Positions 1 to 64,000 of a stretch of DNA of 64,000 bases are shown one piece after another (position 1 is the stretch's first letter; each line of letters opens with the position of its first letter). The stretch is taken from positions 23,468 to 87,467 of the forward strand of contig VCMS01000236.1 in assembly GCA_022539475.1 (NCBI GenBank). Direction: 5' to 3'. The stretch is from Gracilaria domingensis. Taxonomy: Eukaryota; Rhodophyta; Florideophyceae; Gracilariales; Gracilariaceae. The position numbers and the translations under genes are program-made. The notes beneath the pieces are model-generated. The model was not told the origin of the DNA. It saw only the letters and a list, made by a program, of their open reading frames with translations, and made no database searches.

Positions 1-353
1 GTTCTATAGCTTCACTTGGATTGCCATAATTAAAAGGATGGAGTTGGATTGCGCCCGAATACGTCTATAAAGGTCGTAGAAGCACTTATGAACGAAGGAG
101 TTGTAGACATGTTATTGTTGATGACGGTGGAGCCAGGGTTTGGAGGACAGGCGTTTATGGAGGGTGTTCTTGACAAGGTGCGACATGCAAGGGAGTTGTA
201 CCCAAGAATAGGGATACAGGGGATGGGGGTATTGGACTGAGTACTGTGAAAGGAGTAGTGAAGGCCGGTGCAAACATTTCAGTTGCAGGATCTGCCATCT
301 TTGGCTCGAGTAACCCAGCTCATGTCATAGCTGGTTTTCGAAAGGTTGGTTAG
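1..353 (+). pseudogene. RPE: Ribulose-phosphate 3-epimerase C-terminal fragment, frameshifted
   Basis: The translation from about position 43 carries the family signature for the phosphate-binding and catalytic end of ribulose-phosphate 3-epimerase, which interconverts ribulose-5-P and xylulose-5-P in the pentose phosphate and Calvin cycles. Visible motifs are 'LRPNTSI', 'MTVEPGFGGQAFM' and, in a second frame, 'DGGIGLSTVKGVVKAGA' and 'VAGSAIFG', ending at a TAG at 351-353. The two parts are out of register near 211-216, where one base appears to be missing before the 'DGGIG' codons. Upstream of about 43 the frame meets a stop (31-33), so either an intron ends there ('attaaaag' could be an acceptor) or the gene is degraded. 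The window edge cuts the rest. Identity is clear. Whether it is a pseudogene or a living gene with a sequencing error is open. Confidence 0.62.
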
Positions 354-408
354 AGATAGTAGCATAAATTTATTGTTTATTACATTGTTACCTTTACGTG
401 TTATCACG

Positions 409-774
409 ACTACATTCTCCGTCTCTATTGGAGATGTATTTCTCTTGTATCACAACCGGGAAAGGATGTGAGAGAACATAAATATATCCCCAGTGGACGC
501 TGAGAGGGAGGATGAACTACTCTACGTGCTATCATTGTTACCCATCCGGTGTCGAGTGGTGACATATTCTCTTTTTGTCACAACCCACACAGGATGTGAC
601 GGAAGAAGATGCCCCCAGTCGAGACAGAGGGTCAGCTACTCTAAGTACAATCACTAGTCCCTAGCTTGCCTCCACTGGCAATATCTTCCTGTTTTGCTAT
701 AACTATCGAGTGAGGCTATGGTGGAAGAGAAAAATATCGCCGGTCGAGGCGAGGTGGGTGGGGATTATGTGAGC
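409..774. repeat. Diverged minisatellite, about 3 copies of a 115-130 bp unit
   Basis: Three successive blocks share the order 'ttgtatcacaaccgg...aggatgtga...ccccagt...gag...ctactcta...atcact'. The blocks start near 409, 541 and 659. Anchors such as 'cacaacc' at about 455 and 579 and 'aggatgtga' at about 463 and 592 show a period of about 125 bp. Similarity is partial, so the array is old. It lies directly downstream of the epimerase fragment. No coding potential was seen. Confidence 0.5.
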
Positions 775-989
775 GCGAAAGAGGAGACAGAGAGGTGGCG
801 CTTAAATAGTGGAAGGTGCGGGGTGTACAGTAGATGTTTTGGCGGGAAATGGGATGAGGGAAACAGGGACAATCATGGTGCTGGATATAGCCCGTGTGGT
901 TGGACAGTGGGGGTGGACAGCACAGTTTAGCTCGATTGCACTGTATCGCAGCGGAAACTTCGATCCAACTACTACTTCTTTTTCTGAAG

Positions 990-2293
990 ATGTCGAACGG
1001 ATACGTGAAGGATGAGGAGCTGTTGGCGCTGTTGGAGGGGGAGGAGGTACCGCAGACGCCGTCACCAAAGCGGGAAGAGGACGTGATTACGGCGGCTGGT
1101 CGGATGTCGCAGAAGAAGGAAGTGGCCGATGAAGGAAAGAAGTGTGAGGCGAGGAGAGGGGATGGTGATGAGGTGGAGAAGGGGGTAGAATTGGAGGTGA
1201 GGGGGTCGCAATGGAGAGAAGGGGTGCGGTGCATCTGAGTCAGTTAGAGGTTGGAGACCAGATAGAGAGTGGGGGCGGAGAGGGTGACAGGGAGATGCGG
1301 TTTGTGGGGGAGATGAAGGCGAGGGTGGGGATGTTGGGGTTGGTGATGAAGGAGCAACTGGACGATGGAATTGTGGAGATTGTAACGGAAATGGGCGGTG
1401 TGGTGCTGAGTGGGGGTGGTAGTGGTGTTTCGGTTGAGGCGATTTCGAGCCTGCGGAATTCGTTGTCGGTATTGGGAGTGGAGATGAGAAATCATGTGTA
1501 TGGGATAGTGGAGTGTGCGGGAAGGGAGGTTGGAGAGTTGCGGGAGGAGAATAGGGTTCTGAACGAGAGGTTGGACGTGCTGGAGAAGGAGGTGAAGGAG
1601 CTGTGCAAGAGGCAAAGATTGGTGGAAGAGGAGACGGTGAAAGGAGGTGTGGAGGGAAAGACGGAGAAGGGAAGTGTGGGAAGGGTGGCGGTGCAGAAGG
1701 GGTCTCCTGTGACACCGAAGACAAAGGGTGGTGGGGTTGGGGATGGGAAGAGCCGTCTGAAGAAGAGGCGTAAGGAGATGAAGAAGGTGGTGGAGGAGGT
1801 GCCGCGGGAGGGAGTGGGAGCTCCGGTGGTGACTGGGTTTAGGAGTGCGGCGGAGGTAGCGCGGACTGCGAAGGGGATTCTGAGGGGACAGGAGGAGAGA
1901 AGGATGGGAGGGATTTGAAGCCGTTTTGGGGCGAGGCGGGTATACGAGAAGGGGGAGAGTTGTGCACCTGACTTCTACAAAATGAACGCGTGATGGGCGA
2001 GAAATGGGTAAATAGCGGGGGTGGTGTGGACTGGGAAGAAGTGATGGGATGATTGAGGTGGGATGAGTTGCGATTGGCATTGCAACATGGGAGAAAATGG
2101 AAACGCAAACTAGCACGAGTGCAGTTTTGAGAGAGGGTCGCGGAAAAGAGTGAATGGGACCATGCGGCGAAGTAGAACCTCTACAAAACTAGGGGACCCA
2201 AGAACTAAACTGCGCGAGATGGAATTTAATATTCCAAAATTTCTTGATTTTTTGAGTGCCAGCCTCTGCTACCCCCTCGCGCGCCCCAAATAG
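990..2293 (+). pseudogene. G-rich coiled-coil ORF of an unnamed repeat family, copy 1
   Basis: The coding strand is strikingly G-rich and C-poor. An N-terminal piece (990-1238, starting 'MSNGYVKDEELLALLEGEE') is followed, in another frame, by a longer piece (1211-1918). The latter has a coiled coil ('VGELREENRVLNERLDVLEK') and a basic stretch ('KSRLKKRRKEMKK'). After broken sequence, a last in-frame tail at about 2200-2293 reads 'KLREMEFNIPKFLDFLSAS', then 'YPLARPK' and a TAG stop. The same coiled-coil plus basic layout and a matching tail occur at 44115-44909, so this is a dispersed repeat protein, probably a TE ORF1 or gag-like product. No catalytic domain is visible and the family is not recognised. 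Confidence 0.5.
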
Positions 2294-2301
2294 ACCCAAA
2301 A

Positions 2302-2772
2302 CTAGCTTAGTTTCCAAAGCGAACAGACTATATTCCACTTTGCAGAACACAGACGTAACATACTTAGCGCTTTCGTATGGCCTGTAAGACTTCTATCCAG
2401 CGAAGCGCTTCTTCGTTTCTTCACCAGTTTTATCGGAGTCAGTTGATGCCCAAAAACACTAGACTTTGAACCCATTTCCTGATAACGCTCCTTAAGTCGG
2501 TTGTCCTCTAGTAATCGCTGCTTTGTTTCAGAGTCAATTCCATCGCAGATAAGAAGGTGCTCGCCAAATCGTGACGCGTTAGGTCTGGCGGATCTGGAAC
2601 GGTAATTGCACGTCTTGCAAGCCCACGAAATAGGACCATCTTCTCCGTTGGGTAGTGGTAAAGGGCTAAGTTCGAAGTTCTGATTCATCCACCATTTTCT
2701 GGGTCGACCACCTTTCGCCTTGGACGACAAGGTGCTGCCGTTGGAGCTCGTATGGCTTTGGTTCTCAGGCAT
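2302..2772 (-). pseudogene. BED-type zinc-finger fragment, hAT-like transposase N-terminus
   Basis: The 156-residue ORF begins with an AT-hook-like 'GGRPRKWW'. It then shows a BED-like finger, 'WACKTCNYRSRSARPNASRF' followed by 'HLLIC', giving C-x2-C and H-x4-C with the aromatic residues expected ahead of it. In hAT-family transposases this module sits at the N-terminus and binds the transposon ends. Nothing of the RNase-H-like core or the dimerisation domain follows, because the frame runs out after about 60 more unconserved residues. It begins 9 bp downstream of the tail of the G-rich ORF on the other strand. This is most likely a truncated hAT relic. A host BED protein is less likely. Confidence 0.5.
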
Positions 2773-3377: not shown

Positions 3378-3433
3378 TTCTAGTGGACATCTTGCGCATT
3401 AATGGGCGAAAACCCTTGTCTTCATGCAGCAAC

Positions 3434-3496: not shown

Positions 3497-3518
3497 TTTG
3501 TTGAACACCAGACCCCTA

Positions 3519-17964: not shown

Positions 17965-17975
17965 TTTCAGACCAA

Positions 17976-18827: not shown

Positions 18828-19505
18828 ACTCCTTGCCCAATTCGAACCACAAGTTTGCGGGTGTACTAGGCTTCTAGCCCAGTCTCGAAAGACTAGGACT
18901 TGAAAGATTTGTATCGACGAACGAAACTGACAACTGGGCTCTGACTAATTGACTTGGGCGACGCGGAGGGCTTGAGCTGAGCTCAAATCTATTCGGGAGT
19001 CTCATGATCAGAATGGGGAGTTCTCAAAAATAAGTCATTTCAACAAAAATGCTCTCAGTCATGCCTTCAAATGACCTTCGTTTTACAGGATGCAGTCTGG
19101 CTTCAAACTAAGGTCAAAGTTTGTCTTTCTCATCCACGACTCGTGGACGAGAAATGGCTACGACGGCAGCGTTGGTACGTGAGTCACAGTCAAGAGGAAC
19201 CCACAATTGCCCCAAAAGACCGTGATGGGTTTTCAGAGCAAGGTGACTCCCCATGCAGAACACAAGCATAGACATCATAAGCTGGTGAAGGAAGAATGAT
19301 TGCAATACAGAATATGCGAACATGAGAGCATTGAGAGAACGAGGATTTGCCCCAGACGGAGGCCGATGCTTAAATGTACACAGATAGCCTGACGCTGACA
19401 AAAAACATGAAACGAAATCTTGCATATTCCCCGAGACTTACGATTCAGCGCACATGACAAGCACTGCTGAACGTGAGACAAATGAGTAAAACGAGCCCCT
19501 TTGGC
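18828..19505. other. Intergenic spacer
   Basis: This 0.68-kb spacer separates two reverse-strand genes. The short ORFs on both strands lack motifs. It should carry the methyltransferase promoter and the 3' end of the upstream pseudouridine synthase gene. Confidence 0.45.
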
Positions 19506-33469: not shown

Positions 33470-36150
33470 TTTGTAGCTCTCTACAAAACAACTCATCACG
33501 TATTTGGGACTTCAGCAACAAAAATCTCCAAGAGCTTACTCAGCGCAACTTCAGACAATGGCAAGCAAGCATAACAGACATTCTCACCACCCATGGATTT
33601 CCCGATCTGTTTAATGATGCATTTGTGGCCGACAATGAGACAAAGCAAAAGGCCTTCGCATCCTTCCGCATGATCGTCCCAACCAGCATTTCAGACGAAG
33701 TTAATGAATTGGTTCTCGACTCACTCTTCGAACAATGGCCGGTTTACATCATCAAGTACTTAAAAACCCCATTAGACTTCTCACTAAAACGGGATATCGA
33801 CCAGCTCTTCATTGAAGCTCAAAACCTCCGATTTTTTCATGACTCCGGCATCACCGCCTATATTGAAAGTCATCAACGCTATCAACCATTTATGATTGAA
33901 GCAGGCGGAACGGAGCTTTCAAATGAGAACCGTACTGTCAGAATCTTGCTGCGTGTACTATGCAAAGATCAGAACCCTTTCTCTGGAATAGCGGCAACAT
34001 TACTTGCAACGAATACACCGAATAATATAGTGGAAGTCAAAAAGGCATTGGAACCTATGAGTCTCCGACAACCACGGTCTCCGTCCATACGAAAGTATTG
34101 GGACAGCTCGACGCAAAACAGTTCGCCCAACCGAGCACGATCATCGACACTCACTCCCACGAGATCCTCGAAACCTTGCTGTCCTCAATCTCTGAGATGA
34201 CCTCTGCGATGAAGCGAATCGAAGGAAAGCTTTCTACCCAACACCGTGCCCCACGCAACCCGCGTCCCAGCGCCAATTCACAGGCTCTTAAACCAGCAAA
34301 GGGCACCGCCAAACAGGCAAATGCACCCAACGAAGGGGAAACCACTGATTTGCAGGGGCAGCTCCTCCATGCAGTGAATGCACTCCGAGAGGCACAAGAC
34401 ACTAAACCGGACAATAACGATGACAGTAAGTTCCTTCTCGATTCCGGCTCAAACCCAACTCACTCGTCACTAGACCTCGCGGATACTTCCACTCTAAGCA
34501 ACCCCGTCCATACTGTAATCGCCGATTCCTCCACAGTTCCGATTACACAGATGGGGACACTGCTGATGCAAACTGATAACGGACGCACGATATCAGTACC
34601 CTCGCTTGCGTCTAAGCGCATCCATGGCACTCTTCTATCCGTGCACGCCCTATCCAAGAAATACGGAATGGCGCTGTTCACTCCCTCCATTGCTTTCATT
34701 ATGGACGTCAAAAACCCTCTCCAGATCATTGCAACAGCTCCATTTCGCAACAATGGCTACTACGTCAACGCAAAGCAGCTAGCCTAACACTAAAATGGCC
34801 TAGCCTCACCCACGCATACCACTCACACGTCAACTTCGCTTCCCGACGTGAACCTACCCACCCTTGACCCAACTCACAACGTCGCACTTCCCCGAGCCAA
34901 GAAGCGAAAGGCCATGACTGCACCCCAAGACCGCGGCGTTAAAGCCACACCAAATCCAATCGTCACCCCCAACGCCACACCAGCAACCTGCGAGAAACAC
35001 AAGACCGAAGTAACTCGCGCTTTCCACCATTACCACCTTCTTTACAATCATCTTAACGTGCGAACGCTTCAACGCATGGCTAGGGTCAACCTCCTCAACT
35101 CGAAAAAAATTCTGCGCCGCACCCCACCCAGCATTCACTGCACTGGATGCATAGCAGGCAAACGCACGAAAGCGCCTCACAATAGTGCCAGCCACAACCA
35201 CCTCATCGGACGCTTACTGTCCTCCGACATCACCGGATCAATCAAACCGACCTCGACACACGGCAACAACTACTTCGCCGTCTTCTTGGAGACCCGCACG
35301 CAATTCCTCATAGTTTTCTGCGTGAAAACACGCTCGGCAATTCTCCCAGCCATAAAGCAGGTGCTCGACACTATGCGCAACAAATTCGGCTACGCCCCGC
35401 TTCTCCTCACCGCCGATAACGCAGGGGAATACAAATCGTTCTCGTTCTCCCAAGCTCTCAACCACCACGGCACTTCGGTCACCACCTCAACACCCTACAG
35501 TTCACAAGAAAATTCGTTGGTTGAAAGAGTAATGGGCACAATTGTCTGCATCGTACGGTCCAACGTAGCACCCTGCGGCTTCCCTGCGCCACACTGGAAA
35601 GACGCACTACGAGATGCGGTCCTTAAATACAACCGCTCTCTGCAAATGACTACCAGAGCTCTCCCATTCACTCAATGGCACAACCAGGCTCCATCGCTCA
35701 CAAGAGCATTCGTTTTCGGCCAGCTCGGCAGTATTCCAATCATTACGGACACCACCAGCCAAAAAAAGCTGGATCCCCGTGGCACACTCAGCCGCTACAT
35801 GTTCGGAACCAACGACCGGTTAATAATGGTGCAAGTACTCGCAACCAAGACCTACTGACATCTCCAGGCAGTCCAATTCCGCCCATACGTTTCCTCCACG
35901 GACCCTGTCCTCACCACCGCGGCCTCATTCAAAACTTTTGCACCCACACCGACATCGACGACAATCTTGCCATCGTCTCCCGCGCTGGCATCGCGCAAAC
36001 AAGCGCAAAAGTACCCAGACGCACATCTTTGGGCTCAAGCCCACGACGCCGAAATCGACAAGCTTGACAAATTGGGCGTCGTCTAATGGCTTCCACGAGA
36101 TGAAATTCGGGCGAAACTGATCCCTTTAACCATGAAATATAGGTACGAAA
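33470..36150 (+). pseudogene. Ty1/Copia retrotransposon body: gag, protease, integrase, start of RT
   Basis: Gag (about 33470-34200) begins with 'NFRQWQASITDILTTHG' and a capsid-like region. It shifts frame near 34090 into a piece ending with the protease motif 'FLLDSGSNPTHS' (34430-34470). The integrase frame (34848-35858) has the GAG-pre-integrase zinc site 'HHYHLLYNHLN'...'CTGCIAGKRTKAP'. It also has the D-D-E set: 'LSSDITGS', 'LTADNAGEYKS' and 'YSSQENSLVERVMG'. A further fragment near 36010-36150 reads 'AHLWAQAHDAEIDKL' and 'WLPRDEIRAKLIPL', the usual start of the Copia RT domain. The sequence then breaks off. The order protease-integrase-RT defines Copia. RT, RNase H and the 3' LTR are missing. 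Confidence 0.8.
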
Positions 36151-52017: not shown

Positions 52018-53870
52018 GTCTTTTCTAATGGTTTTATCTTCTGAACAGGAACGTTAGGGGCTATCAAGTTTCGGAGCACCCACGTTTTTCAATTTTGTTC
52101 ATGAGAAACCTTTGAAAAACGCGCTGTGGGTCGCACGGAGATGCTAGAGGAACGTTTAGAGTTGAATCTGGAACAAAATTGCAAATTGGTGGCTTTGCCT
52201 GCTGTATCTGATAGTCTGAAATGGCCGAGAGTGACCGGGGTTCGTTTGGGGTGACGACCATGAGAAAAGTAGACAGTGAAGACCAATGATCTCGGACAGG
52301 GTGCGCAATGAGAATAAGGTAAGCTTTTTGGACGATGGGTGCGGAGCGTGCTCTTGTTTTTGGGCCTAGGGAGCCTTTACACAGTACGAGGCAAGTTCCA
52401 CAACGCCGGCGAATCCTCGCCCGATACGAGAGTGATCCTCGTCAGCTATTTCCGTAAGGATCGGCCCAATAGCCCTTCGACAAGTTAAAAATCCTTACAA
52501 ACTAAGTACACTATTGATCGGATCCCCAGTCGAAATATGGGATATAGTTTGGATACAAGTTTGATATAGAACGCGTGATATATTTCGGATATAATTCACC
52601 GACGTTTCTGGGATATTAATGAGATATAGATTTGATACAAAATAGATAAACTTTCATTAACTACCAGACATATGCTTGAACTTTGATGGAAACGTTTTTG
52701 ATAAATCTGTCGCATAAGTTTAAGATGAGAACGATTATATTTGGATATGATTGAGGTGCAATTAAGTTCCCAAAGATGGTCTGTTTGAGGGGTTCTGCTC
52801 AGTACGTTAGATAAGCATCTAGTCGGAATTCACTATACGCAAGATAAAAATCTTGATTCCAGTTTTCAATGAAATGATGTGCTTTACGTCTGATACTGCT
52901 ACAGCCTACACTAAGAACGATCCTTCCATAACCGGAGATTAGTACCATCTGGGAATCCCTCGAATGCGGTGCAACACATGACAGAACACGTTGAGGTCAG
53001 CGACCATGCTCATGACGGCTCCCGCGTGGTGCCCGGCACCTGCGACGGCCACATGCGAAACGTCCACAGCCGCGATTTGTTTGTTCTTTGATCACTTTTG
53101 CATATCGTGACATATCATCAGCTGACCGCCTCTGTACAGCACGCTTCTGTGAGAATCGCTTGGTGTCAGCCTAGTTCGGCCTTCATGCTCAGCACTCAGT
53201 ATCGGTCCGAGTGACCGGAGTCGCTGTGCCCTTTTAGGCTTGGAAGACACACACAAACAGATCAAAGTTGCACTACATATCGATCCAGGCGCCACATGAA
53301 GCCAAACACAACGAAAAACGACCCCGAGTGGCTGCTGCTGGGCAGTCTCCGTTTCGAAGTCATCATGTTTCAATATAGAAATGTAATGCAATTGATACCG
53401 TGGGCGGGACTGGGGAGTAAATCCATCAGTTATGTGCGTCTGTCTCTTGCAGATGCTAGATTTTTTAGGCGAGGGTCGTCCAGAAATTGGCAAGGGTCGT
53501 CCAGTAAATTTTTTGAAAAAATATCGAGATCAATTATTTCAAAATTTGCAGATAATTGCTTGGGTCGTCCAGAATCGCTGTGCAGTAAATACTGGTGGGT
53601 TTTCCACTCGTCCTAGTTCTCTAGTCGAGGGCTACCTGAACTGTATTTCGCGAAGTCTAGGTTCAGTTTCCATTAAGGTGCACATTACACGATACCTTCT
53701 GCGGAATGATACCCTGCAACGCATGGAATACTAGTGCTAGTACAGATGATGCCCATTATGAAATCATACCGTTTTATTCGTATCTATTCTTCTATCGACC
53801 GCTTTTGCTAACCACTACTTCGCTATATTACATGTATCATATCCCCATGATGGAGCGGGTGTAGGCGCAA
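52018..53870. other. Spacer, AT-rich, without recognised genes
   Basis: Repeated 'ggatatag/gatatag' motifs occupy about 52540-52640. The motif 'gggtcgtccaga' recurs three times between 53465 and 53575. No ORF shows family features. Confidence 0.4.
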
Positions 53871-54022
53871 TCTGCGGCAGATGCCGCAGACTGCACGTCC
53901 ACCATCAGCTGTATCGGTAGAACAAATACGCACTCCGAGAGGATGAGGCGCTTCGCGCCTCATCCTCTCCGTTCCTCATGTAGGGAACCATGCCCAGATG
54001 CCTGGTTCCCTACTTGAGGAAC
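53871..54022. repeat. Three consecutive hairpins
   Basis: Hairpin 1: 'tctgcggca' (53871-53879) with 'tgccgcaga' (53882-53890). Hairpin 2: 15-bp perfect arms 53937-53951 and 53955-53969 with a 3-nt loop. Hairpin 3: 20-bp arms 53971-53990 and 54003-54022 with one mismatch. Hairpins 2 and 3 are separated by a single base. Confidence 0.85.
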
Positions 54023-54067
54023 CTGCACCTGCAACTCGTGAGCTACGTCCGCATCAAAAGTCATTTA

Positions 54068-54955
54068 CCTGTATACGCAAGCAGAAAGTATCCATAAGTT
54101 AGTCAATGATCCGTTGGATACATTTGAAATGCGATGGAACGTACCATTGATAAAACAAAACAGAAACGTTGCGCTAGAAAAGTCGAGGGACCTAGTAACT
54201 CGCAAACGGAAGAAGAAGCAGGAAAGAGATCGGTTAGATTACCAGCCCACCATCATCGTAAAGCGCGAAAGGTGTCGAAGCGAGAACTCACAACCAAGGA
54301 CACCAAGAATGCCCATGCAGCAAACATATTTCAAGATGCGATAAACGAGAGAGCAGCCTATGTCCCAACCAAGTACCAGAATCGCCTATCCCGAACAGCC
54401 AGAGATCGATCTTGAGAGACGAAATGAAATTGGTCGTTTTCCTGTATACGCAAGCAGAAAGTATCCATAAGTTAGTCAATGCTCCGTTGGATACAGTTGA
54501 AATGCGATAGAACGTACCATTGATAAGAGCAAAACAGAAACGTTGCGCTAGAAAAGTCGAGGGACCTAGTAACTCGCAAACGGAAGAAGAAGCAGGAAAG
54601 GGATCGGTTAGATTACCAGCCCACCATCATCGTAAAGCGCGAAAAGGTGTCGAAGCGAGAACTCACAACCAAGGACACCAAGAATGCCCAAGCAGCAAAC
54701 ATACCGCAAGATGCGATAAACGAGAGAGCAGCCTATGTCCCAACCAAGTACCAGAATCGCCTATCCCGAACAGCCAGAGATCGATCTTGAGAGACGAAAT
54801 GAAATTGGTCGTTTTCCTGTATACGCAAGCAGAAAGTATCCATAAGTTAGTCAATGCTCCGTTGGATACAGTTGAAATGCGATAGAACGTACCATTGATA
54901 AGAGCAAAACAGAAACGTTGCTCTAGAAAAGTCGAGGGACCTAGTAACTCGCAAA
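54068..54955. repeat. Tandem repeat, 2.4 copies of a ~374-bp unit
   Basis: Units start at 54068, 54441 and 54816 with 'cctgtatacgcaagcagaaa' (periods 373 and 375). Identity is very high between copies. The third copy breaks off after 'tagtaactcgcaaa' at 54955. Short frames inside it are not credible genes. It lies between the hairpin cluster and the Plavaka-type transposase. Confidence 0.9.
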
Positions 54956-55219
54956 AGTAACCCAAAGCCTTTTTCCTGCCGTTTACATGTCGCAGAGCGC
55001 GAAGAGACGTGGTGAGGATTGGTTAGTTTAGAACAAAGATACGTAGAAGGAAATGGAAGCACGTACGAAAAGACTGCACGGAAAGACTGCACGGAATACA
55101 TCCGTGAGATACGGATGCTGTCCGCTTTATGGAGGCGTCCGACGAGGGCGGAGAAAGAGAATGAGGTACGCTTCATGTCCGCTTAATGGAATTCATTCTC
55201 AGCACGCTACTTCGTAATC

Positions 55220-55281
55220 CGTCGTACTTTTTTCCGCCCTCGCACTTCGTAGCGAGTGCGAGGGCGGAAAAACGTACGACG
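55220..55281. repeat. 27-bp inverted repeat upstream of the Plavaka-type transposase
   Basis: Arms 55220-55246 and 55255-55281 match at 26 of 27 positions (core 'ttccgccctcgcact'), with an 8-nt loop. Weaker complementarity extends outward to 'ctact...agtag'. It may be a terminal or subterminal structure of the large element, or a promoter-proximal hairpin. Confidence 0.8.
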
Positions 55282-55647
55282 AAGCGGAGTAGAACGCGAG
55301 GATGGCACGGATCACGACGGTAACAAAAGATCGGACGTCGGACGGGCGGGGGCGGCGGCGGAGGGAAGAGATTTATTTTTCTGTGCGAGATTGGACAAGT
55401 GTACAGCGTACAACGTTGGGAAACCAGAGGTTTATAACCAGTGGTAGATAATACGAGAAGTACACCCTTGTGTTGAGGACGACGTGTACCTACGTTCCTT
55501 TTTGAACGAAAGCACGTGATTTAAACTCAAAATATATTCTCCGTTCTGAGCAACACGTCGATATTGACTGTCGCTCGACCTCCTTCTCCCTTCGGACGCC
55601 CTTCCGTTGCAGTCTTTGTCGTCGTTTCTGGTTCATTTCTTCTTCCC

Positions 55648-58600
55648 ATGGTCTACTACTGTACACATAAGAAGCGTGGGTGCCCCTTCGTTACTCGCCG
55701 AGGAGTCTTATCTCTTCAACAGCATGTCAACCATTGCCCGTTTCGTCTGAAAGCAGCGCTGGAAGACGACAATAGGCGGCCCATTCGGAGAAGCAAACGT
55801 CTCAAGCTTTCCGCGCCCGCGCCCGCATCTTCCGAAACGGTCACTGCCCCTTGTCGCCTTCCCGAGCCTCCAGTGTCCGAGGACATCGTCGACCCCACTC
55901 CGTGCGCCCCTCTCATTCCGGACACTTCGCATTGTGTTTCTCCTTCCCCGGGTCCCGCGTCATTAGAGCGAGAACACGGAAGCAGTTCCCGCCCAGTGCT
56001 TTCTGAGGAGACCCTCGGTGATTTGCATATGGATTATCTCACGGTTTGTCTGGCTTCAGTAGCTTCCAACCTTGGTCATCGTGAGGCGGACGAGCTAATT
56101 GGGCTACTTCGGGACCCGCGATTCTCGCAAAAGCGATTCAACGAGACCATAACAAGTTCCAAGCGCTGTACAGAACTGAAGAACGCCATTTTCGAACGAT
56201 ACGCCTCAAAGGACGGTTTCAATCGAAGAACTGTCTCGCCAGAAGGATGTAAGTTCAGCGCCACCCTCTACACGAGAGACCCCGTTCAGACACTTTTGAA
56301 ACAGCTCCAGTTGGCTAACAACGAAAACACATTCTTCCACCCTATACCTCAGACCCACTCCACGAAAATATCTCACCCCATGTCCGGCTCTCTCGCAAGA
56401 GACGCCACCTCAAAACTTAAGTAAATGGTCATGGGCTCTTTAGATAGTAGAATAGTGTGGTACTCCCAAGAAATAAGTTACAGTGAATCTTTCGTAGGTC
56501 TTCTGCAGGTATACACCGATAAGTCTTCAACAACTCTAAAGCAAACATCGGTTACCGCCTATCCTCTTCACCTCATATTTCTCAACTTCTCCGACGAGCT
56601 TCGCCGTAAGTGTATCCGTGATGACCTCACAGTAGTGGCATACTTCCCTACCACACTGACCGAGGTTTCCGCATCTGAAGCAGACGCAATGCCATTCGTT
56701 TCCAGCAAGTCTCTACGCGAGTCCAGGATGCAAATCCTTCAAGAATCTCTTCGTCAAGTCCTGGAGCCCATTCTAAATCTCACGCAGAAAGGTTTTCAGT
56801 TCATCGGGGAAGACAAACTAAGTCGAGTGTGCCATCCTCTGCTTGCAAGTTATTGTGCGGATATTCCTGAGGCTAAGGACATTCTGCCCATTCTTCATGG
56901 GACCAAAACGGAAAGCCCGTGTCATAGATGCAAAGCCCCTCGCTCATCTTTATGCAGTCCTATTCCCACCTCATTCAACGGACGTTCTCAAAAGCACACG
57001 AAAAGCATCCGAAAGACATACACAGCTATCTTGCAACATGCACAAAAAGACGAGGCGGAAAGACGTCCACGTCGTGCGAGGGAGAGGAGATCTCAAGCGG
57101 ATACTCTGATGCGTTCAAATTCCATATCTCTCATTCCTTCGTTCCTCGAAACTTCCGTAAGCCTTGGAATGATCCCGGGATTGTCTCCATACAGTCTGTT
57201 CTCATTCTAACCATTACACAACTTGCATCTCGGCATCTCAAAGTTGATAAAAACGGCCACAATCGAGAGACTGCAGTCAGACACCCTGTGCACCACAATA
57301 GGAACATCTGCATCGCGTTCATTTCGAACGATACGCACCCAACTCCTCAACCATGCAAACGCAATTCTAGCTGCCATAGAACGCGATTCTCCTGCCAAAG
57401 GTTTACATATCGATTTCTCCACGCAGGACAAAGGCAAATCTTTGAATGGTATCTTCACGAAAGACGGTCTCCGTGGAATGCTGGAGGCCAAAAACTACAA
57501 AGCACTTGACATGGTCTTCCCCTTCATAGGAGCATTCTTTGACATATGCTGTGGAGAACAGGACGTTGCCCCAATCACAACCGTTTTCTCTCAGTATTCG
57601 GACTTGCTCTCGACCTTATTCAGATACAATCGTGACCCGTATTGGACTGAAAGCTCTCTCCTGTGTCTTAGTTCAGAGATTGAAGCCTTCAAGCGTTCCG
57701 CAACAAAGACTCTGGCGGATTTTCATCCCTCCAGACTGGGAACTCTGAAGTTTCATCTTCTCGATCATCTCGTGGACGATATTCGCCGTCTGGAAGTATC
57801 AAGTACTACGACGCAGGCATATACGAACATGCACAACTGCTATTTAAGAGACACTACAAAAAGACGTCCAGAAGAACAGCAACGGCTGTGGAGGAGACTA
57901 TTCGCTCCATTGAGCACGGACATGTTAGAAAGCAATGGAATGGCAATACTCCTTACCAGCGTAATCCAGGTTTATCAGGAACTTCCACACAGCTTCCTCG
58001 GTTTGCAATGAGAGGGCGTTCTTTCACTTTACGAGCTCTTCAACATTGTGTTTCAAGTATGTCCAGTTCAAAAACATGGACTGCTGTTAGAGAGATGTTC
58101 TCAAGTACGGACACAAGGTCGATTCTTGATCAGATTGGTGAACAGGCCCTTCCTCCTTTCCTCAGTCTCGTGAAAGAAACACTGGATGAGCCCTCTATTA
58201 CATACTTCCCAGAAAAGACAAGGATAACTCTGGTGAATTCGGCCCTCGTGAAAGGCGGTTTCGTTCCGACTCTTGAACACTTCGATTCGTCTTCTAAGGC
58301 ACTTAAGCTGGGACGACCCAAATACCCCATCATCCAACGTGTCTTCGCTTCTCCAGCATTTGGTCCCAGTAGAAAGCCAAAGTTTTCCACTGTATTGGTA
58401 AGCGGAGAAGATTCAGAGACTTGGGTTGCCCAGGTAGTCGCTCTGATTCGAATATCTCTCCTTGATTCTGCACTTACCGCACCAGAGGTGGCATTCGTCC
58501 GGTATTTCGAGGTTTTACCCCCCGCAACAAACATCGACCACATATTGAAATGCATATCTTTACGGTGGGCTACAAACGATGAAAAGAACCACACTCTTCC

Positions 58601-58826
58601 GTTCCCTCGTCATTCCAAAGCGGAGACTATCGTAGAGTTAACTCCTTGGTATGGGATGGTTCCGGCTTCTGCACTACAGGGAACTGTCCATGTTGTTCGA
58701 TCAAACTACCCTGCTCCACCTTTTTGTCCTCCACTTCAATGGTTTCAACACCGATTCTACATCAATCGATTCTATCATGATTCAGATGAAGGACCAACTG
58801 AGCACGTTGATCTTGTACAGCCTTAA
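55648..58826 (+). pseudogene. Plavaka-type (CACTA/KDZ-allied) DDE transposase
   Basis: It begins at 'MVYYCTHKKRGCPF' with a C2HC-like finger ('C..KKRGC' ... 'LQQHVNHC'), then a Ser/Pro-rich linker. An N-terminal transposase region ends at an in-frame TAA (56422-56424). The same frame continues with the core 'FVGLLQVYTDKSSTTLKQ' and 'AYPLHLIFLNFSDELRRK' (the Plavaka 'Y-x-D-K/G-T...P..L...N....R' block), then 'ILPILHGTKTESPCHRCKAP'. A second TAA (57208-57210) is followed by 'PLHNLHLGISKL', 'ALDMVFPFIGAF', 'LGTLKFHLLDHLVDDIRRLE' and 'MHNCYLRDTTKRRPEEQQ'. A frameshift near 57990 leads into a C-terminal region ending 'VHVVRSNYPAPPFCPPLQWF' and 'YINRFYH'. Family features are strong. It would excise and insert the element. 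Confidence 0.75.
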
Positions 58827-59360
58827 ACATTAAGGGCTCCATCCTCTACATGTTCACCTTGTGGTGCCTTTTCTTGTGATCCTGTGTTACTTCCGAAATC
58901 GTTCATGTCCATTTCCTTGAACTCCATATCCCCTTCCTCGCATTCACCAACGAAGCAATCGCTAATAGACCCCAATCTTCGGCTCACACTGTCAATAAAA
59001 AATTGTTCTTTCACAGTGAGGTAAAGTCTTCCGTTCGACGGCATTCGATATCCAAATGTAGCCTCTCTCATGTCATTACCAAGAACCTTAGTCCAATCTT
59101 CCGTTGTCGTTCCAAAATTATGAAACTCGCTGGAATTGGTCCTCAAGACACGTCGCCTAAAATCCCCCAGAACATTCTTTATACACAGAGGTAGCAGTTG
59201 GGCAAACTTCTTTGTAAACAGTTTCTGTCTCTGGCCACCCCTTGACACATCCGTACTTAGAAGGCTCACAACCGTCAACACCCAAGCGTCCAAACGTGCG
59301 AGCAACAGTATTGTGCCATCTAAAAAGGTGCCGGTATTTTGTCTTCCACATCATATCCAA
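58823..59360 (-). pseudogene. Unrecognised cargo ORF, tail to tail with the transposase
   Basis: The frame ending at 58823 overlaps the transposase stop by 4 bp. It reads 'QKLFTKKFAQLLPLCIKNVL', 'LRTNSSEFHNFGTTTEDWTK', 'LYLTVKEQFFIDSVSRRLGS' and a very acidic end ('GECEEGDMEFKEMDMNDFGS'). An alternative frame (59360-59157) reads 'GRLGVDGCEPSKYGCVKGWP'. It is unclear which is genuine upstream of 59305. It may be the C-terminal part of the coiled-coil cargo gene that ends at 59404, since codons between the two remain readable ('VLKEFIGYDVEDKIP'). Confidence 0.4.
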
Positions 59361-59403
59361 TAAACTCCTTCAGTACTTGTACCCCGACACGGTTTCGGAA
59401 GAA

Positions 59404-61216
59404 CTAGTCTTGATCTTCCGTCGGCATATCCTCGACATTGTCCGCATTGGAGTACTTTAGACGAACAAATGGGGCTTTTCTCCACCATGAAGTGTTCGGT
59501 ACACCATTTTCGTCAAGACGCAGTATGTTCTCCTGCGCTTCCTTCAACTGCATTGTGAGTTCGTCAGCATTCTCTTCTATTAGCTTTGTTGTTCTCCAAA
59601 TCAGATCGTACCCCAGGAGCAGAAATAGTTTATCCCTCGTATTTCTCTTACGAACGCCCACGACGTCACTCATGGTCTGCCGCATTCTCTGCCTAAGGCA
59701 CATATCTGCACAAAGTTCCAGTATACACCTGTCGGTAAGAGATGCTTTTCTAATACCTTCCCAGCTCAACTCCTTCAACTCGCTTTCAACCATTTTCTTC
59801 AGCAAAGCATCTGGCCCCCCTCTACCGACGGTGTGAACATGCCAAAACTGCCCAAGAGCTCCACGGGGTTTTTAGGAACCATGTATGAACCACCTTCCTC
59901 CGGCTCAATAAGCCCTTCCCCACTCTCAGTTGCGTCTTCCACCTTCTCGGCACGGTTACCCCAATTTCGGGTGAGCGACTCACCTTCGAGCCATAGCTCA
60001 CTTGTTTTCTCCTTGCCCACGTCAGCATTTTGTGATACACTGCTCGAGCAACCCCTCGAAACTCGTCGCACACCTCAATTTTATGCTTCTTTCGACCTGT
60101 CTGCCCAGGTTCACCAGCACGTGTACTCCTATCTCCCTCCTGTTTCAGTGCCCCTCTTAGCCCTTCAATGACTAGATCCTTCTCTTCAAGCCTCTTTTTC
60201 AAAGCCGTACTCTGCTCTTGGGCGACCTTCACTAGAATTCCCCGAACCATCAAGTCCTCTTGTAGCGTCTTAACCTTTTCTTTCAAGCAATTCAGTTCAT
60301 TTAAAAGATCAGGTCTGTTCATAGAGCTTGAATTCACACCAGTTTGGATATCTTCCGTTATTTCCCTAGCTTCTTCGGCGACAGGCCCCGGTAATGCCGC
60401 AGGATTCGGTGTTATTTCGTTATCGGAACTATCCTCATGTGCCATAGCCTTAGACACGAGAGGCTGCAGGCGTTCTGTGTCCACCCTTGGCACGGCTCCG
60501 AGCTCCAACTCCCGTGTCTGTCCTCCTCCATGGCATGGTATATCAGATGAATTGGGTCTCGTACGAGCTGCAACGGCCCCCATTCTGGAAAGAGGGGAAG
60601 GTCGAAAAGTAACTCGTCTATCAGTTGTCTCTCGATTTCTTATTGTCTTTCTCCCTTGTCCGGACCCATTGCGAGGCATGATACGGTTCATAGCGGCCCC
60701 AGTTCTAGAAGACAGGGATGGACGGACGATCTTAATATACTAGGGCTCTCACGACTTCTCGTCATTGTCCCTTGTTGTCCAGATCCACTGGGCGGCGTAA
60801 CCCGCGCCCCAGTAGCTCCGGTCTTCGATATCGGCCGGGGACATGAAGGTTTTGGTGTCATACGAACCTCTTCGGTTCCAGTTGTCATGCCCTCCTGTCC
60901 TGACCCGCTGGGCCGAGTTACCTCATCTTCTTGAGGAGCAGAGACAGATGCAGATTTGCATTATCGGCAGTTGACGGCACGACATCGTTCGCTGATCCAC
61001 GAATTCTTGACGCAATCCCGGAAGACGCTCCGCTGCGAGATGGGCGAGAGAGTCCTGTAGAAGGACGCTCACTGACTCTCTCCTTCGTCGAGGACGACTT
61101 CCGTTTAGGAAGTCGGTGCTTGTAGCCTGATTCGTATCATCCGATGCTCTTCTCTTCTTCTGTCCACTCTTGTTCCTCTGCGTACTATTTCGCTTTCTCG
61201 GCGTCATACCCATGTT
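59404..61216 (-). pseudogene. Coiled-coil cargo protein with 40-residue repeats, frame-broken
   Basis: A plausible start is 'MGMTPRKRNSTQRNKSGQKK' (about 61216), a nuclear-localisation-like basic N-terminus. Three tandem 120-bp units (about 60570-60920) encode repeats built on 'P.GSGQ..' and 'RPISKTGATGARVTP'. A coiled coil follows ('LLNELNCLKEKVKTLQEDLM', 'ALKKRLEEKDLVIEGLRGAL'). In other frames come 'ELWLEGESLTRNWGNRAEKV' and 'ILELCADMCLRQRMRQTMSD' ... 'LFLLLGYDLIWRTTKLIEEN'. At least two frameshifts separate the pieces (near 60000-60040 and 59800) and another lies between repeat units. No enzyme motif is present. It sits in line with the SET and methyltransferase genes. Confidence 0.45.
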
Positions 61217-61249
61217 GTGGAGATAAACAGGGTAATGAAACGAAATGTT

Positions 61250-61279
61250 GGGGAGGGGGGGAGGGGGTGGGGGGGGGGG
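61250..61279 (+). other. G-tract, potential G-quadruplex
   Basis: The + strand has G runs of 4, 6, 5 and 11 broken by single A or T bases, enough for a four-stack quadruplex. On the - strand it reads as a proline run in an ORF upstream of the cargo start codon. It lies between the SET gene and the coiled-coil cargo gene. Confidence 0.6.
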
Positions 61280-61461
61280 TGCATGGTTCAGATATTCCGG
61301 GAGACTCCGCAGTTCCTGCTTTTTAGGAATTTGAGGTGCCCAATGGGTCGCAAATATCGCCGTTACAGATGAAGAGCTCCAGTGTACATGTACAACAACG
61401 CGTATTGCAGGCAGCTGCAACACTCACAAGCATATTTACTTTCTATTGGTACTGAACTCAT

Positions 61462-62223
61462 CTATTGCTCCAATGTCAGAGCCCAGTCCCAGGCGTACTG
61501 CTCTCCGTAGTTGAAATACAACTCTTCGCCCCTCTCAATATCTCTTACTGCTCTACAACGAAGTAGAGCATAGTTAGAAAGGTCTGACTTGAACTGTATC
61601 ACGGACTTCGCTTCCACCACCTGCACATTGGCACTTCGAGTCCTGTTTGACCGGGGCTCCGATAAATCGGGATCCCCGGCATGATATCCGGCGTCGTTAA
61701 TGTAGCCCCCGATACAAAAAGGCGCCGGGACAATGTAGACTTCGCTCTCCTTTCTATCCTGAGCCTGTCCTGGTCTGTTCCTCAGGTGCAGAAACTCCGT
61801 ACCAGTCACAGTGACCATCATAGAAAACAACTTGTACCGCACTGGAGTTGCTCCGAGACAGCCACTTCCATACGTTAAGTGTCTTTCCTTCCGGTTCGTC
61901 AGATCCGTGTATACCAAAGTTCCATAGAAATGACAGATAGTTTCCCCAGCCAATATCTTATGTTCCGTGAACACCCCCATACCAGCACGGGGATGTCGAA
62001 TCTTAGAAGATGCTATATGTAAGCGATAGCGATTGGCTTCAACAGTCAACAGCATATGCATATCCATAAGATTCAGAGCTCCTCGGTACTTCCCTCCCAA
62101 AGATCTACAGTACGCTGTCCACACTTCTCGACAAAGTCCCAGTCCTTCCAGTATCTTCCTAGGAACTGAGTAATATGTCCAGGCATCACTTGGTACTGGG
62201 GGTAACCAAATGGAGCCTCCCAT
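61462..62223 (-). CDS. SET-domain protein (putative lysine methyltransferase), TE cargo
   Basis: The ORF has 253 codons, but the first about 48 overlap the methyltransferase ORF in another frame and may not be used. The SET fold runs over about 79-245: 'GMGVFTEHKILAGETICHFY' (SAM/substrate start), 'YIVPAPFCIGGYINDAG' with the N-H/D box, 'RSANVQVVE' (Asn199), 'NYALLRCRAVRDIERGEELY' and 'FNYGEQYAWDW', the catalytic Tyr block. There is no clear pre-SET or post-SET zinc cluster. SET enzymes methylate lysines, often on histones. The box 'N-D' in place of 'N-H' occurs in divergent algal and protist members. The gene lies directly downstream of the DNA methyltransferase on the same strand. Confidence 0.75.
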   Translation of the reverse strand: MGGSIWLPPVPSDAWTYYSVPRKILEGLGLCREVWTAYCRSLGGKYRGALNLMDMHMLLTVEANRYRLHIASSKIRHPRAGMGVFTEHKILAGETICHFYGTLVYTDLTNRKERHLTYGSGCLGATPVRYKLFSMMVTVTGTEFLHLRNRPGQAQDRKESEVYIVPAPFCIGGYINDAGYHAGDPDLSEPRSNRTRSANVQVVEAKSVIQFKSDLSNYALLRCRAVRDIERGEELYFNYGEQYAWDWALTLEQ

Positions 62224-63997
62224 TCAAGCCGACCTCGGTCCCGATGTGGAACCCGTTCATAGGTCGTTGAAGCCGCATCCACCACCTCCTGTTCAACCAG
62301 GATGTCATTCTTCCCCCCGCGAATAACTTCGGCCATAAGAGTCGTTAGATGGTGCTTCGCATGGCTGAAACATGGCCTATTCTTCTCGCACCCCAAGAAC
62401 TTCCTATGCTTTGTCAGCGATAGGCACGCCATACCCGTAGAAAAAGTTCCCGCGAACATGTCCATGACAAGATCACCCGGTCTTGTGAAGCGACATATCA
62501 ACTCCTTCATCAACTCCCTCGACTTCTGCTCCGGTCTTATGTACTGCCCACCTGGTACTGAACTACCTGGCTCATGTACCTTCCATGTCAACCACTCCCC
62601 CGCTCTCGGTTTGGGCACCCGGTCAATTACATTCCTGTTAGCCGGGAAAGTGAAGGAATGAAATTGTTCTCCTCAAATGGAGTAAGACTGGCTTCCTCCG
62701 ATGGTCGCAATCCACGCTTCACCCCATGAACGGCGTACTCCGTTACGGGCTGTATCCCAAACTTCCGTGGATTCCCTCCAACATTACTGCGATCCCGGAT
62801 GAACACCAGTGGATTCGCATCCACTTTAAACGAAGGCATGAGTTCTGGTTTACCTTCGCTTCCAGCTTCATCTTTCGTACTCGCCGTTTCCGAAAGTATC
62901 CTGTGCCACACATGAAACTGTGCCATGGCACAGAATATAATGAAGTGCCCACCTGACCGAAGCGCGGAACTTATTAAGTCAGCCGTACGGATCATGTCTT
63001 CCTCACTGAAGACATCGTGACCACTATTCCGTTTGTTCCTCTTCCTTCGAGTGTTAAAGGGAGGGTCTGTTAGGACAAGCTGTGCCTCACCCCATAAAAT
63101 CTCACTCTGATTCACAAACGTTTCGTGTGTGTGCCTCAGGTCCTTCATGTCACAGTTGTACGCTACAAAGTGTGACTTTCTCATCCCCTTCCACACCTTG
63201 TCCATATTCATTCGAAGGAGACTGGATATCCCCTTCATGGGCGGCTCAATACCAGTCTTTTGGATGTTGTAACCGGCAACCCGAGATTCATGCTCCGCAA
63301 GATTCACCGGCTTCTCGAACTCGTCGCTATCGGAGCTCACGAGGTTCATATACTCTCGACGAGGTGGGGGTGGGGCAGACTTGGTCGAAGAAGGTTCGGC
63401 ATTACCGGAAGTTTTAGGGGTTTTCGTCAGTTCAATATCAGGTTTCGCGTGAATGCCGACATGGAACCCTGCCGCATGACGCATATCCTGTATCGGTTTC
63501 CATAGCAACTCCGAAAACTTCTGAAATCGAGCAGGCAACTCACCGGAGTCAGAGCTAGATACGGTATCCATCCGTATCTCCGAAAACTCTATCCAGTTCC
63601 TCATCTGATCAACCCGTAAGCTATAGAGGCTATCGTGGGTGCATATGGTTTCGAGGTCTGTCAAAAACTCCTTAGCCAGTATTCGCAGGTTTGTATCGCA
63701 TTCATCACTCAAGGTCTCCACCGATCCACTAGTACTGCTCTGTGGCACATCCTTTGTGTTGAATCGAGTACTCTGGCTCGGCGGGGCATAACCAGACTCC
63801 CGTGTCTCTAGCGCTGTATACTTCAACGTCTGCATATTCATGTAAATGTATGGTTTCACCATGTGCTGAACGTTCGTGTATCCAAGATGAGCCGCAAAAC
63901 AACTCCATGCCCATACGACCTCACTGATAGCGAATCCCAGTCGATCACAGTTGTCTTTGGAGAACGACGTAAAGTGGGTATGTACACGATGGTGCAT
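62073..63997 (-). pseudogene. DNA N6-adenine/N4-cytosine methyltransferase (beta-class order), one frameshift
   Basis: The first part (63997-62627) has about 300 residues of unrecognised N-terminus with acidic and Pro-rich linkers. The catalytic motif IV follows as 'AQLVLTDPPFNTRRKR' (63053-63067), then 'LISSALRSGGHFIIFCAMAQ'. The frame shifts by one base near 62645; in the new frame 'FPANRNVIDRVPKPRAGEW' leads to 'RPEQKSRELMKELICRFTRP'. Motif I is 'DLVMDMFAGTFSTGMACLSL' (about 62436-62464), then 'FLGCEKN'. Motif IV before motif I is the beta-class order (CcrM/HinfI-like, Pfam N6_N4_Mtase). 'DPPF' favours adenine over cytosine ('SPPY'). The C-terminus ends at 62073, inside the SET ORF. The true start may lie beyond the window. 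Confidence 0.75.
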
Positions 63998-64000
63998 GGT

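What the first reader, a model, noticed from the sequence alone, without database searches (positions are those of the whole stretch)
53871..63997. Large Plavaka-type DNA transposon that appears to carry a DNA amino-methyltransferase and a SET methyltransferase
Seen: a decayed Plavaka-type transposase on + meets, with a 4-bp stop-to-stop overlap, a compact array on - containing an unknown ORF, a coiled-coil protein, a SET protein and an N6/N4 DNA methyltransferase. Known: fungal KDZ/Plavaka-class elements can carry TET/JBP DNA-modification genes, and some eukaryotic retrotransposons carry C5 methyltransferases. Inference: this is one element that brings its own writers for DNA (probably 6mA) and chromatin methylation, perhaps to protect itself or permit its own expression. 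I know of no described element with this pairing, but could not search.
Basis: partly seen in the sequence, partly recalled or inferred. Interest (0 to 1): 0.92.

Follow-up and report, generated by a model that had tools for sequence, protein, structure and literature searches.

The report
Giant red-algal Plavaka transposon with methyltransferases
The end of this window holds the left half of a large, many-copy jumping gene in what is very probably a red seaweed genome; it carries its own enzyme that joins a DNA methyltransferase to a protein (SET) methyltransferase, so the element may chemically mark its own DNA and chromatin.

Summary
The window end (53437-64000) is the left half of a Plavaka DNA transposon cut off by a contig end. 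Copies elsewhere give both termini, CGTCTGTCTC.. and ..GAACACAGACG, an imperfect inverted repeat found 478 and 501 times exactly in the 77.9-Mb genome. The longest common form is about 22.8 kb; many copies are shorter. The host is very probably the red alga Gracilaria domingensis, not a fungus. MTase and SET are one gene: five of 30 copies read hold them in an open 1055-codon frame, and 23 of 29 homologues, one from Chondrus, carry both domains. Beyond the contig the element carries a second fusion (ParB-like plus probable 2OG dioxygenase), two HAD hydrolase-like genes and a 30-bp palindrome array (907 sites). Copies up to 13.8 kb show 2-bp target duplications (9 of 9); larger ones mostly do not (2 of 10), which I read as chimeric assembly or rearrangement. 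A role in self-marking or anti-silencing is inferred. Giant EnSpm/Plavaka-like elements with accessory genes are already reported from red algae; this is a new variant, not a new kind.

The parts
53437..53456 (+). Left terminus of the element (CGTCTGTCTCTTGCAGATGC), half of an imperfect terminal inverted repeat
   Evidence: 1 match in window, 0.02 expected; 478 exact copies in the genome, reversed-pattern control 0; homology of the copies L010 and L042 with the window ends here
54060..54955 (.). Left subterminal tandem array, 375-bp unit, 2.4 copies
   Evidence: Tandem Repeats Finder, 97% matches
55555..58826 (+). Plavaka transposase gene, broken by two in-frame stops and one frameshift; intact 1091-aa frame in copy L042
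   Evidence: Pfam PF18759 67.2 bits here, 68.1 in L042; alignment to L042 frame 98.8%
58823..61213 (-). ORF2, unknown function, coiled-coil-like by eye, convergent with the transposase (4-bp stop overlap); in pieces here, one 832-codon open frame in C171
   Evidence: a related Plavaka element in C171 has a similar convergent partner by eye; no Pfam match for the three pieces scanned. Upper limit approximate
61462..64000 (-). MTase-SET fusion gene, codons 209-1055 of the 1055-codon frame of L017; four single-base deletions, no in-frame stop apart from those the shifts expose; 5' end cut by the contig end
62350..63075 (-). N6/N4 amino-methyltransferase domain (motif DPPF first, FAGTFSTG later: permuted beta-type order; class name recalled)
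   Evidence: Pfam PF01555 E 3.9e-15 on the intact frame; best solved relatives are N6-adenine MTases. Coordinates projected approximately from L017 residues 516-753
61504..61983 (-). SET domain
   Evidence: Pfam PF00856, residues 81-240 of ORF 61462-62223, E 1.9e-8
1..2355 (+). Right end of a neighbouring 11.2-kb deletion derivative of the same element (C236:14614-25822), right terminus at 2336-2355, flanked by TA on both sides

Best explanation
This is the left half of a giant (about 22.8 kb) Plavaka-type cut-and-paste DNA transposon of a red alga, very probably Gracilaria domingensis. Shown: two termini forming a short imperfect inverted repeat; 2-bp target duplications on the shorter copies; gene order transposase(+) / ORF2(-) / MTase-SET fusion(-) / palindrome array / ParB-like-dioxygenase-like fusion(+) / two HAD hydrolase-like genes and others / right terminus, pieced together from overlapping copies; hundreds of ends in the genome; the MTase copies fetched are 97-99.6% identical to the window, i.e. 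recent. Inferred: the transposase moves the element; the MTase-SET protein methylates DNA (most likely adenine N6) and a lysine; the ParB-like-dioxygenase protein is recruited to DNA, perhaps to the palindrome array between the two divergent cargo genes; together they mark the element's DNA and chromatin so that it escapes host silencing or controls its own excision.
For: Termini 478 and 501 exact copies with zero controls; 2-bp duplications in 9 of 9 copies of 13.8 kb or less, and in a 22,840-bp copy, C20:34726-57565 (right end with one mismatch), that holds transposase, SET and dioxygenase hits. 36 of 93 MTase hits have a transposase hit in convergent orientation 2-12 kb downstream, against 1 in same-strand orientation downstream and 7 upstream in either orientation. 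Copy C171 has transposase (999 codons), ORF2 (832), MTase-SET (1055) and ParB-like-dioxygenase (1087, cut within the dioxygenase part) as open frames on one contig. Fusion conserved: 23 of 29 homologues carry both Pfam domains by the database's own annotation; in the alignment of 24 of them with the query D521, P523, D723, G727, N978 are invariant and Y1041 at 90% or more (that these are catalytic-type positions is my reading). AlphaFold model (mean pLDDT 77.1) matches CcrM and M1.HpyAVI N6-adenine MTases best. pN/pS among 31 copies 0.38 overall, 0.28 MTase, 0.36 SET. Palindrome: 907 sites, control 0; of the 50 listed, 49 lie inside an element or on the inner side of an element end. MTase copies' DNA identity.
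Against: Only 2 of 10 copies of 16.8 kb or more with two facing ends show the 2-bp duplication (yes: C20, C8:278212-298361; no: C29, C51, C54, C50, C23, C41:250663-267528, C570, C211); 9 of the 10 further candidates and 2 of the 10 groups lacked at least one end where I looked. No single copy was read from end to end in full size. Of 30 MTase-SET copies 5 are fully open; the rest have indels, an in-frame stop or are partial. The copies used for pN/pS were mostly fetched as best protein matches, which biases the ratio down; a count of distinct variants gives 0.56. Adenine versus cytosine-N4 specificity is not settled: N4-cytosine MTases also match. The dioxygenase call rests on an H-x-D ... H ... 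R pattern conserved in three sequences; no Pfam, no PDB profile match and a failed fold. ParB-like rests on a motif and one weak PHROG match, E 0.18. No function was tested.
Confidence: 0.78

Rival explanations
1. The mobile unit is the short (10-14 kb) element; the 22.8-kb forms with MTase-SET are composites made by recombination or by the assembler, and the cargo is not routinely mobilised.
For: Target duplications are in 9 of 9 short copies but only 2 of 10 long ones; some contigs, including this one and C169, end inside long copies.
Against: The one short copy read in full has left part, palindrome region, truncated ParB-like gene and HAD fragment in the same order as the long form, so it looks like a deletion of it; C20 is full size with a duplication; the convergent transposase/MTase order recurs at 36 of 93 MTase hits. 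An assembler's failure to span a 23-kb repeat would explain contig ends and mismatched flanks.
Confidence: 0.15
2. The enzymes serve the transposition chemistry rather than silencing escape: MTase-SET methylates the termini or array to time excision (as Dam does for bacterial Tn10/IS10, recalled), and SET acts on a non-histone protein such as the transposase.
For: The MTase resembles bacterial N6-adenine enzymes; the palindrome region is kept in the shortened copy read in full and inside other short intervals.
Against: No target sites known; ends are far more numerous than MTase hits scored and the short copy lacks MTase-SET, so such copies multiplied using it in trans or not at all.
Confidence: 0.25
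3. MTase-SET is passenger cargo without function for the element, like captured host fragments in Pack-type elements.
For: Most of the 30 copies examined carry indels or a stop; the right end also carries what looks like a captured metabolic gene piece, a ribulose-phosphate 3-epimerase fragment.
Against: The same fusion with invariant MTase and SET positions is found in 24 aligned homologues down to 22% identity; five of 30 copies are fully open over 1055 codons, 98.7-99.7% identical to each other's reference L017 in DNA, i.e. recent.
Confidence: 0.12

Closest known systems
Giant En/Spm (CACTA) families of the red alga Chondrus crispus, 16-20 kb with 4-5 ORFs (Kojima, Bao, Jurka 2013, Repbase Reports, as cited in PMC6431247; passages seen)
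   Same: Red algal host, CACTA-type relatives, enlarged size, several extra ORFs; a Chondrus protein (P0006, 1000 aa, 'adenine specific DNA methyltransferase') is a homologue of MTase-SET with both Pfam domains
   Different: Original entries not read, so whether they already contain MTase-SET is unknown; this element is in Gracilariales and is about 22.8 kb
Giant EnSpm elements of the red alga Bostrychia moritziana (Petroll et al. 2025, Curr Biol; not held; cited in PMC12477816, passages seen). That they are Plavaka is my recall of the abstract.
   Same: Giant red algal elements with multiple accessory genes; [quoted passage not shown]
   Different: There ParB is described as joined to the MTase; here MTase is fused to SET, and ParB-like to a dioxygenase-like domain
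Sola1-1_Ec32 of Ectocarpus (PMC12477816; passages seen)
   Same: 21.5-kb DNA transposon with an opposite-strand gene for an amino-MTase
   Different: Different transposase superfamily; MTase fused to ParB-like; no SET mentioned in the passages seen
PlavakaA/B and TET+ Plavaka of fungi (Kojima 2025, PMC12730594; passages and sections 4 and 20 seen)
   Same: Plavaka transposase, 2-bp (B: 2-3 bp) target duplications, DNA-modifying cargo as a class
   Different: Fungal; TET/JBP eraser instead of MTase-SET; termini TGT..ACA or CATCA..TGATG
HarbingerS and MuDR transposons with SET genes, Phytophthora (cited in PMC12730594 introduction)
   Same: DNA transposon carrying a SET methyltransferase
   Different: Other superfamilies; a fusion to a DNA MTase is not mentioned in the passage seen
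DIRS retrotransposons with Dam-like N6A MTase and retrotransposons with C5 MTases (PMC5890265; passages seen)
   Same: Eukaryotic mobile elements bringing their own DNA MTase
   Different: Retrotransposons; no SET domain (term absent from that paper)
Plavaka giant repeats of Amoebidium (PMC11244446; passages seen)
   Different: Tyrosine recombinases as cargo; no MTase-SET mentioned in the passages seen

Membership tests
Plavaka DNA transposon | Transposase matches the Plavaka family | tested here: met
   PF18759 67.2 and 68.1 bits, cut-off 26.3
Plavaka DNA transposon | Terminal inverted repeats | tested here: met
   CGTCTGT identical at both ends, 12 of the first 15 positions alike; 478 and 501 exact ends
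Plavaka DNA transposon | 2-bp (or 2-3 bp) target site duplication, after PMC12730594 | tested here: met
   Met for copies up to 13.8 kb, 9 of 9; for copies of 16.8 kb or more only 2 of 10, so for the full-size form it is inconclusive
Plavaka DNA transposon | PlavakaA (TGT..ACA) or PlavakaB (CATCA..TGATG) termini | tested here: not met
   Termini are CGTCTGT..ACAGACG, so it is not filed under either fungal subgroup
Beta-type amino (N6A/N4C) DNA methyltransferase | N6_N4_Mtase domain with DPPF/Y before the AdoMet-binding FxGxx-like motif | tested here: met
   Pfam E 3.9e-15; D521, P523, D723, G727 invariant in A1; fold match to CcrM
Beta-type amino (N6A/N4C) DNA methyltransferase | Adenine rather than cytosine-N4 specificity | tested here: inconclusive
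   Best PDB matches are N6A enzymes but PvuII and rotifer N4C MTases also match
SET lysine methyltransferase | SET domain above the curated cut-off with the conserved Tyr | tested here: met
   35.1 and 32 bits, cut-off 22.4; Y1041 at 90% or more in A1. The usual NHSC motif (recalled) reads YINDA here
SET lysine methyltransferase | Methylates a histone | not testable with these tools
   No experiment possible
2OG-Fe(II) dioxygenase | HxD...H...R in a double-stranded beta helix | tested here: inconclusive
   H178, D180, H254, R274 invariant in three sequences; no Pfam or PDB profile match; fold failed, pLDDT 28
TET/JBP dioxygenase | Recognisable Tet_JBP domain | tested here: not met
   No such Pfam match at E <= 0.5 for L050 or E <= 5 for P0031-P0033
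ParB/Srx-like domain | ParB N-terminal motif | tested here: inconclusive
   VDGLHRL-type motif by eye; no Pfam match; a PHROG ParB match at E 0.18 for P0032 only
Giant red algal EnSpm/Plavaka elements | Sequence relationship of transposases to the Chondrus and Bostrychia elements | not tested
   Those records were not read; only the MTase-SET homologue in Chondrus was seen

The most novel reading that the evidence does not exclude
A eukaryotic DNA transposon that carries a complete, DNA-targeted marking kit: one polypeptide that writes both a DNA base mark and a lysine mark (MTase-SET), a second polypeptide that joins a ParB-like DNA-binding module to a dioxygenase that reads, edits or removes base marks, and between their divergent genes an array of 30-bp palindromes that serves as the recruitment site, so that the element sets and resets its own epigenetic state.
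Probability: 0.2. Interest if true: 0.88.

Novelty: new variant of a known kind. Interest (0 to 1): 0.62.

Why it matters
It links DNA base methylation and lysine methylation in a single protein that is carried by a mobile element and kept across distant homologues. With hundreds of element ends in one seaweed genome, some copies with the fusion intact and at least one without it, it offers a natural test of whether transposon-borne methyltransferases mark the element itself, its shortened relatives and neighbouring genes, and of how giant transposons escape silencing. It also adds a case to the recent reports of giant transposons with accessory genes in red algae and gives it defined ends.

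Tried and rejected

Separate MTase and SET genes: rejected; one frame in L017, L019, L024, L030 and L056.

Element ending near the MTase: rejected; homology runs on for about 12 kb.

C465 as a clean end: rejected, its boundary is an assembly gap. C171 as a complete copy: rejected, homology stops short of both termini. C50 as a source of the right part: its stretch upstream of the MTase did not match.

Viral origin: a scan of viral contigs with the MTase-SET alignment found 101 relatives, of which 80 were kept; these match only query residues 507-804, none reaching the SET domain. In a viral fold search the 50 rows shown bear names of MTase, SET or ParB/Srx proteins or none; no name shows an MTase-SET fusion.

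ParB-like part by homology search: no protein at E <= 0.001. Dioxygenase fold: failed; PDB search with the single protein gave only chance-level hits.

Literature: the ten searches (listings only) and the passages read showed no paper describing an MTase-SET fusion in a transposon. Petroll 2025 and PMC3918813 are not held; Repbase Reports and Iyer 2011 were not read; so absence from print is not shown. Passages of PMC13182070, PMC12633428 and PMC13062707 added nothing on this point.

Decay versus assembly error: 68 single-base deletions (30 loci plus the window) against 9 single-base insertions (30 loci, counted) suggest that part of the frameshifts may be sequencing errors; not resolved.

The convergent count stayed 36 of 93; the upstream control rose from 5 to 7.

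Full report
What was checked. The window is C236:23468-87467 of an unnamed 77.9-Mb assembly of 680 contigs, and contig C236 ends at window base 64000. So the finding's right side is not an element end but a contig end, and the rest had to be read from other copies.

Host. A protein search with the dioxygenase-like cargo returned four proteins, two annotated to Gracilaria domingensis, one of them on a contig of 201,579 bases, which is the length of C250 in this assembly. MTase-SET relatives include a Chondrus crispus protein. I take the host to be the red alga G. domingensis (Rhodophyta, Gracilariales); this is an inference, strong but not certain.

Genes in the window. The transposase matches Pfam Plavaka at 67.2 bits (cut-off 26.3) and aligns over 55555-58826 to an intact 1091-residue frame of another copy, L042, at 98.8% identity; the window copy has two in-frame stops and one frameshift. 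It meets the minus-strand array tail to tail with a 4-base overlap of the stops. The array is ORF2 (coiled-coil-like by eye, in pieces here and one 832-codon frame in C171) and then MTase-SET. The window's SET ORF (61462-62223) and MTase ORFs (62073-62618, 62627-64000) are pieces of one gene: of 30 copies examined, five (L017, L019, L024, L030, L056) hold a 1055-codon frame across all of it without stop or indel; five have one in-frame stop (two of these without any indel); the others have indels or are partial. The window copy covers codons 209-1055 with four single-base deletions.

The MTase-SET protein. Pfam gives N6_N4_Mtase E 3.9e-15 (residues 516-753) and SET E 1.8e-7 (883-1042) on the intact frame. 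The closest solved proteins by sequence are N6-adenine MTases (M1.HpyAVI listed as DpnA, CcrM, MboIIA), and an AlphaFold model (mean pLDDT 77.1) matches CcrM and M1.HpyAVI first, with PvuII and the rotifer N4-cytosine MTase further down. Adenine is therefore likely, not shown. A protein search found 29 homologues at E <= 0.001; 23 of 29 carry both Pfam domains by the database's annotation, 6 only the MTase. Of the 29 I aligned 24 (left out: P0013, P0015, P0016, P0018, P0029); identity to the query is 22-41%, and D521, P523, D723, G727, N978 and others are invariant. Among 31 copies (30 loci and the window) pN/pS is 0.38 (N-terminal part 0.43, MTase 0.28, SET 0.36), but 29 of the 30 loci were fetched as best protein matches, which lowers the ratio; the figure from distinct variants is 0.56.

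The rest of the element. From the MTase start the homology continues through a region with palindromic repeats, a ParB-like plus dioxygenase-like gene on the opposite strand, two HAD hydrolase-like genes (Pfam E 5.4e-5 and 3.4e-10), an unidentified gene, and a ribulose-phosphate 3-epimerase fragment (E 2.9e-16), to a right terminus in C322 and C250. In C171 the ParB-like part and the first part of the dioxygenase-like domain lie in one open frame of 1087 codons, which leaves the element's homology before the HxD motif; in C169, C250 and C322 the two parts are in different frames at the joint. The G. domingensis protein P0031, as annotated, joins the two but skips part of the dioxygenase domain; two unnamed proteins, P0032 and P0033, hold the whole arrangement. 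The dioxygenase assignment rests on an invariant H-x-D ... H ... R pattern in three sequences; Pfam, a PDB profile search and a fold gave nothing. The ParB assignment rests on a motif and a PHROG match at E 0.18.

Ends, copies and target duplications. Copies of the left side start at CGTCTGTCTCTTGCAGATGC (window 53437), of the right side end with CACTTTGCAGAACACAGACG. They occur exactly 478 and 501 times in the genome, with no match to the reversed patterns. Of the copies with both ends that I tested, all 9 of 13.8 kb or less have identical 2-base flanks (C2, C8 three times, C9, C26, C19, C41:132780-146554 and the neighbour in C236:14614-25822). Of 10 copies of 16.8 kb or more, 2 do (C8:278212-298361 and C20:34726-57565, 22,840 bp, whose right end has one mismatch) and 8 do not (C29, C51, C54 with either of two right ends, C50, C23, C41:250663-267528, C570, C211). 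The size limit between the groups was set after seeing the data. C255 and C178 and 9 of the 10 candidates lacked at least one end where I looked and are not counted. Chance would give 1 in 16. I think the long copies are mostly chimeric in the assembly, since some contigs break inside them, but ectopic recombination would look the same. With 14 paired intervals averaging 13.5 kb (11 of 14 under 15 kb, contigs C1-C17 only) and about 480 ends, the family may make up some 6.5 Mb, roughly 8% of the genome; this is a rough estimate.

Do transposase and cargo go together? Of 93 MTase hits, 59 have a SET hit just downstream on the same strand, and 36 a transposase hit in convergent orientation 2-12 kb downstream; the controls are 1 (same strand, downstream) and 7 (upstream, either strand). 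Lists were capped, so these are lower bounds and the 57 without a listed transposase cannot be read as cargo-only copies. The short copy next to this window is an internal deletion of the long one: it keeps the left part, most of the transposase gene, the palindrome region, the start of the ParB-like gene, a bit of HAD gene and the right 3.7 kb.

Palindrome array. GTCGTGTTAGGGTA-NN-TACCCTAACACGAC occurs 907 times (control 0), often spaced by about 110 bases. Of the 50 sites listed, 33 are inside intervals between paired ends, 49 are inside or on the inner side of an exact end within 16 kb, and one (C2:387223) has no end nearby. It is present in short intervals too. In C171 one exact site (12119) lies between MTase-SET (8484-11648) and the divergent ParB-like-dioxygenase gene (12588-15848). 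A ParB-like protein with a palindromic array suggests recruitment, but binding is speculation.

How it probably works. The transposase and perhaps ORF2, which a second Plavaka element in C171 also seems to have as convergent partner (by eye), move the element by cut and paste; the 2-base duplications fit this. MTase-SET would write a DNA mark and a lysine mark on the element, the second fusion would bind and edit, and the outcome would be escape from silencing or control of excision. Only the anatomy is shown.

What is known. Enlarged 16-20-kb En/Spm families with 4-5 ORFs were reported from Chondrus crispus (PMC6431247 citing Kojima 2013; passages seen). [quoted passage not shown] from recall, its abstract speaks of giant Plavaka transposons in Bostrychia. 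Kojima 2025 (PMC12730594; passages and two sections seen) gives 2-bp duplications for PlavakaA, with other terminal letters than here, and mentions SET genes in HarbingerS and MuDR elements. So the kind is known. What I did not find in print, within the ten searches and the passages read, is the MTase-SET fusion in a transposon, its pairing with a ParB-like-dioxygenase fusion, and the palindrome array.

Verdict. Observation confirmed; interpretation partly supported; new variant of a known kind; interest 0.62.

Noticed in passing
window 1-2355 (C236:14614-25822): Right end of a neighbouring 11.2-kb internally deleted copy of the same element with a TA target duplication.
   Followed up: yes
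L055-L057 reversed, positions 17865-22757 (C171): A second, diverged Plavaka-like element beside the first, with transposase-like frames of 811 and 343 residues and an ORF2-like convergent partner, by eye.
   Followed up: partly
G000 genome-wide: 30-bp palindrome GTCGTGTTAGGGTA-NN-TACCCTAACACGAC, 907 exact sites, about 110-bp spacing; 49 of the 50 listed are inside or next to ends of this family.
   Followed up: partly
L050 2438-3349 and 3600-4352; L051 332-1453 and 1665-1949: Right-end cargo: two HAD hydrolase-like ORFs, an ORF that by eye resembles a ketopantoate-reductase-type protein (no Pfam match), and a ribulose-phosphate 3-epimerase fragment.
   Followed up: partly
L022 (C564), frame 850-4329: SET part replaced by a frame that by eye looks like a pogo/DDE_1-type transposase, i.e. 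a possible nested insertion.
   Followed up: no
C465:24000-34403 (L047, L044, L017): Two MTase-SET stretches in opposite orientation separated by an assembly gap.
   Followed up: no
MTase-SET copies, 30 loci plus window: 68 single-base deletions against 9 single-base insertions: possible assembly indel errors that make copies look more decayed than they are.
   Followed up: partly
P0031: The public record for this ParB-like-dioxygenase cargo protein is named 'cell-wall-anchored protein SasA', probably a misannotation.
   Followed up: no
window 6074-7165, 19506-20573, 24252-25517, 34848-35858: By eye only: a CYP51-like P450, a pseudouridine-synthase-like protein, a trypsin-like protease and a Copia-type integrase.
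   Followed up: no
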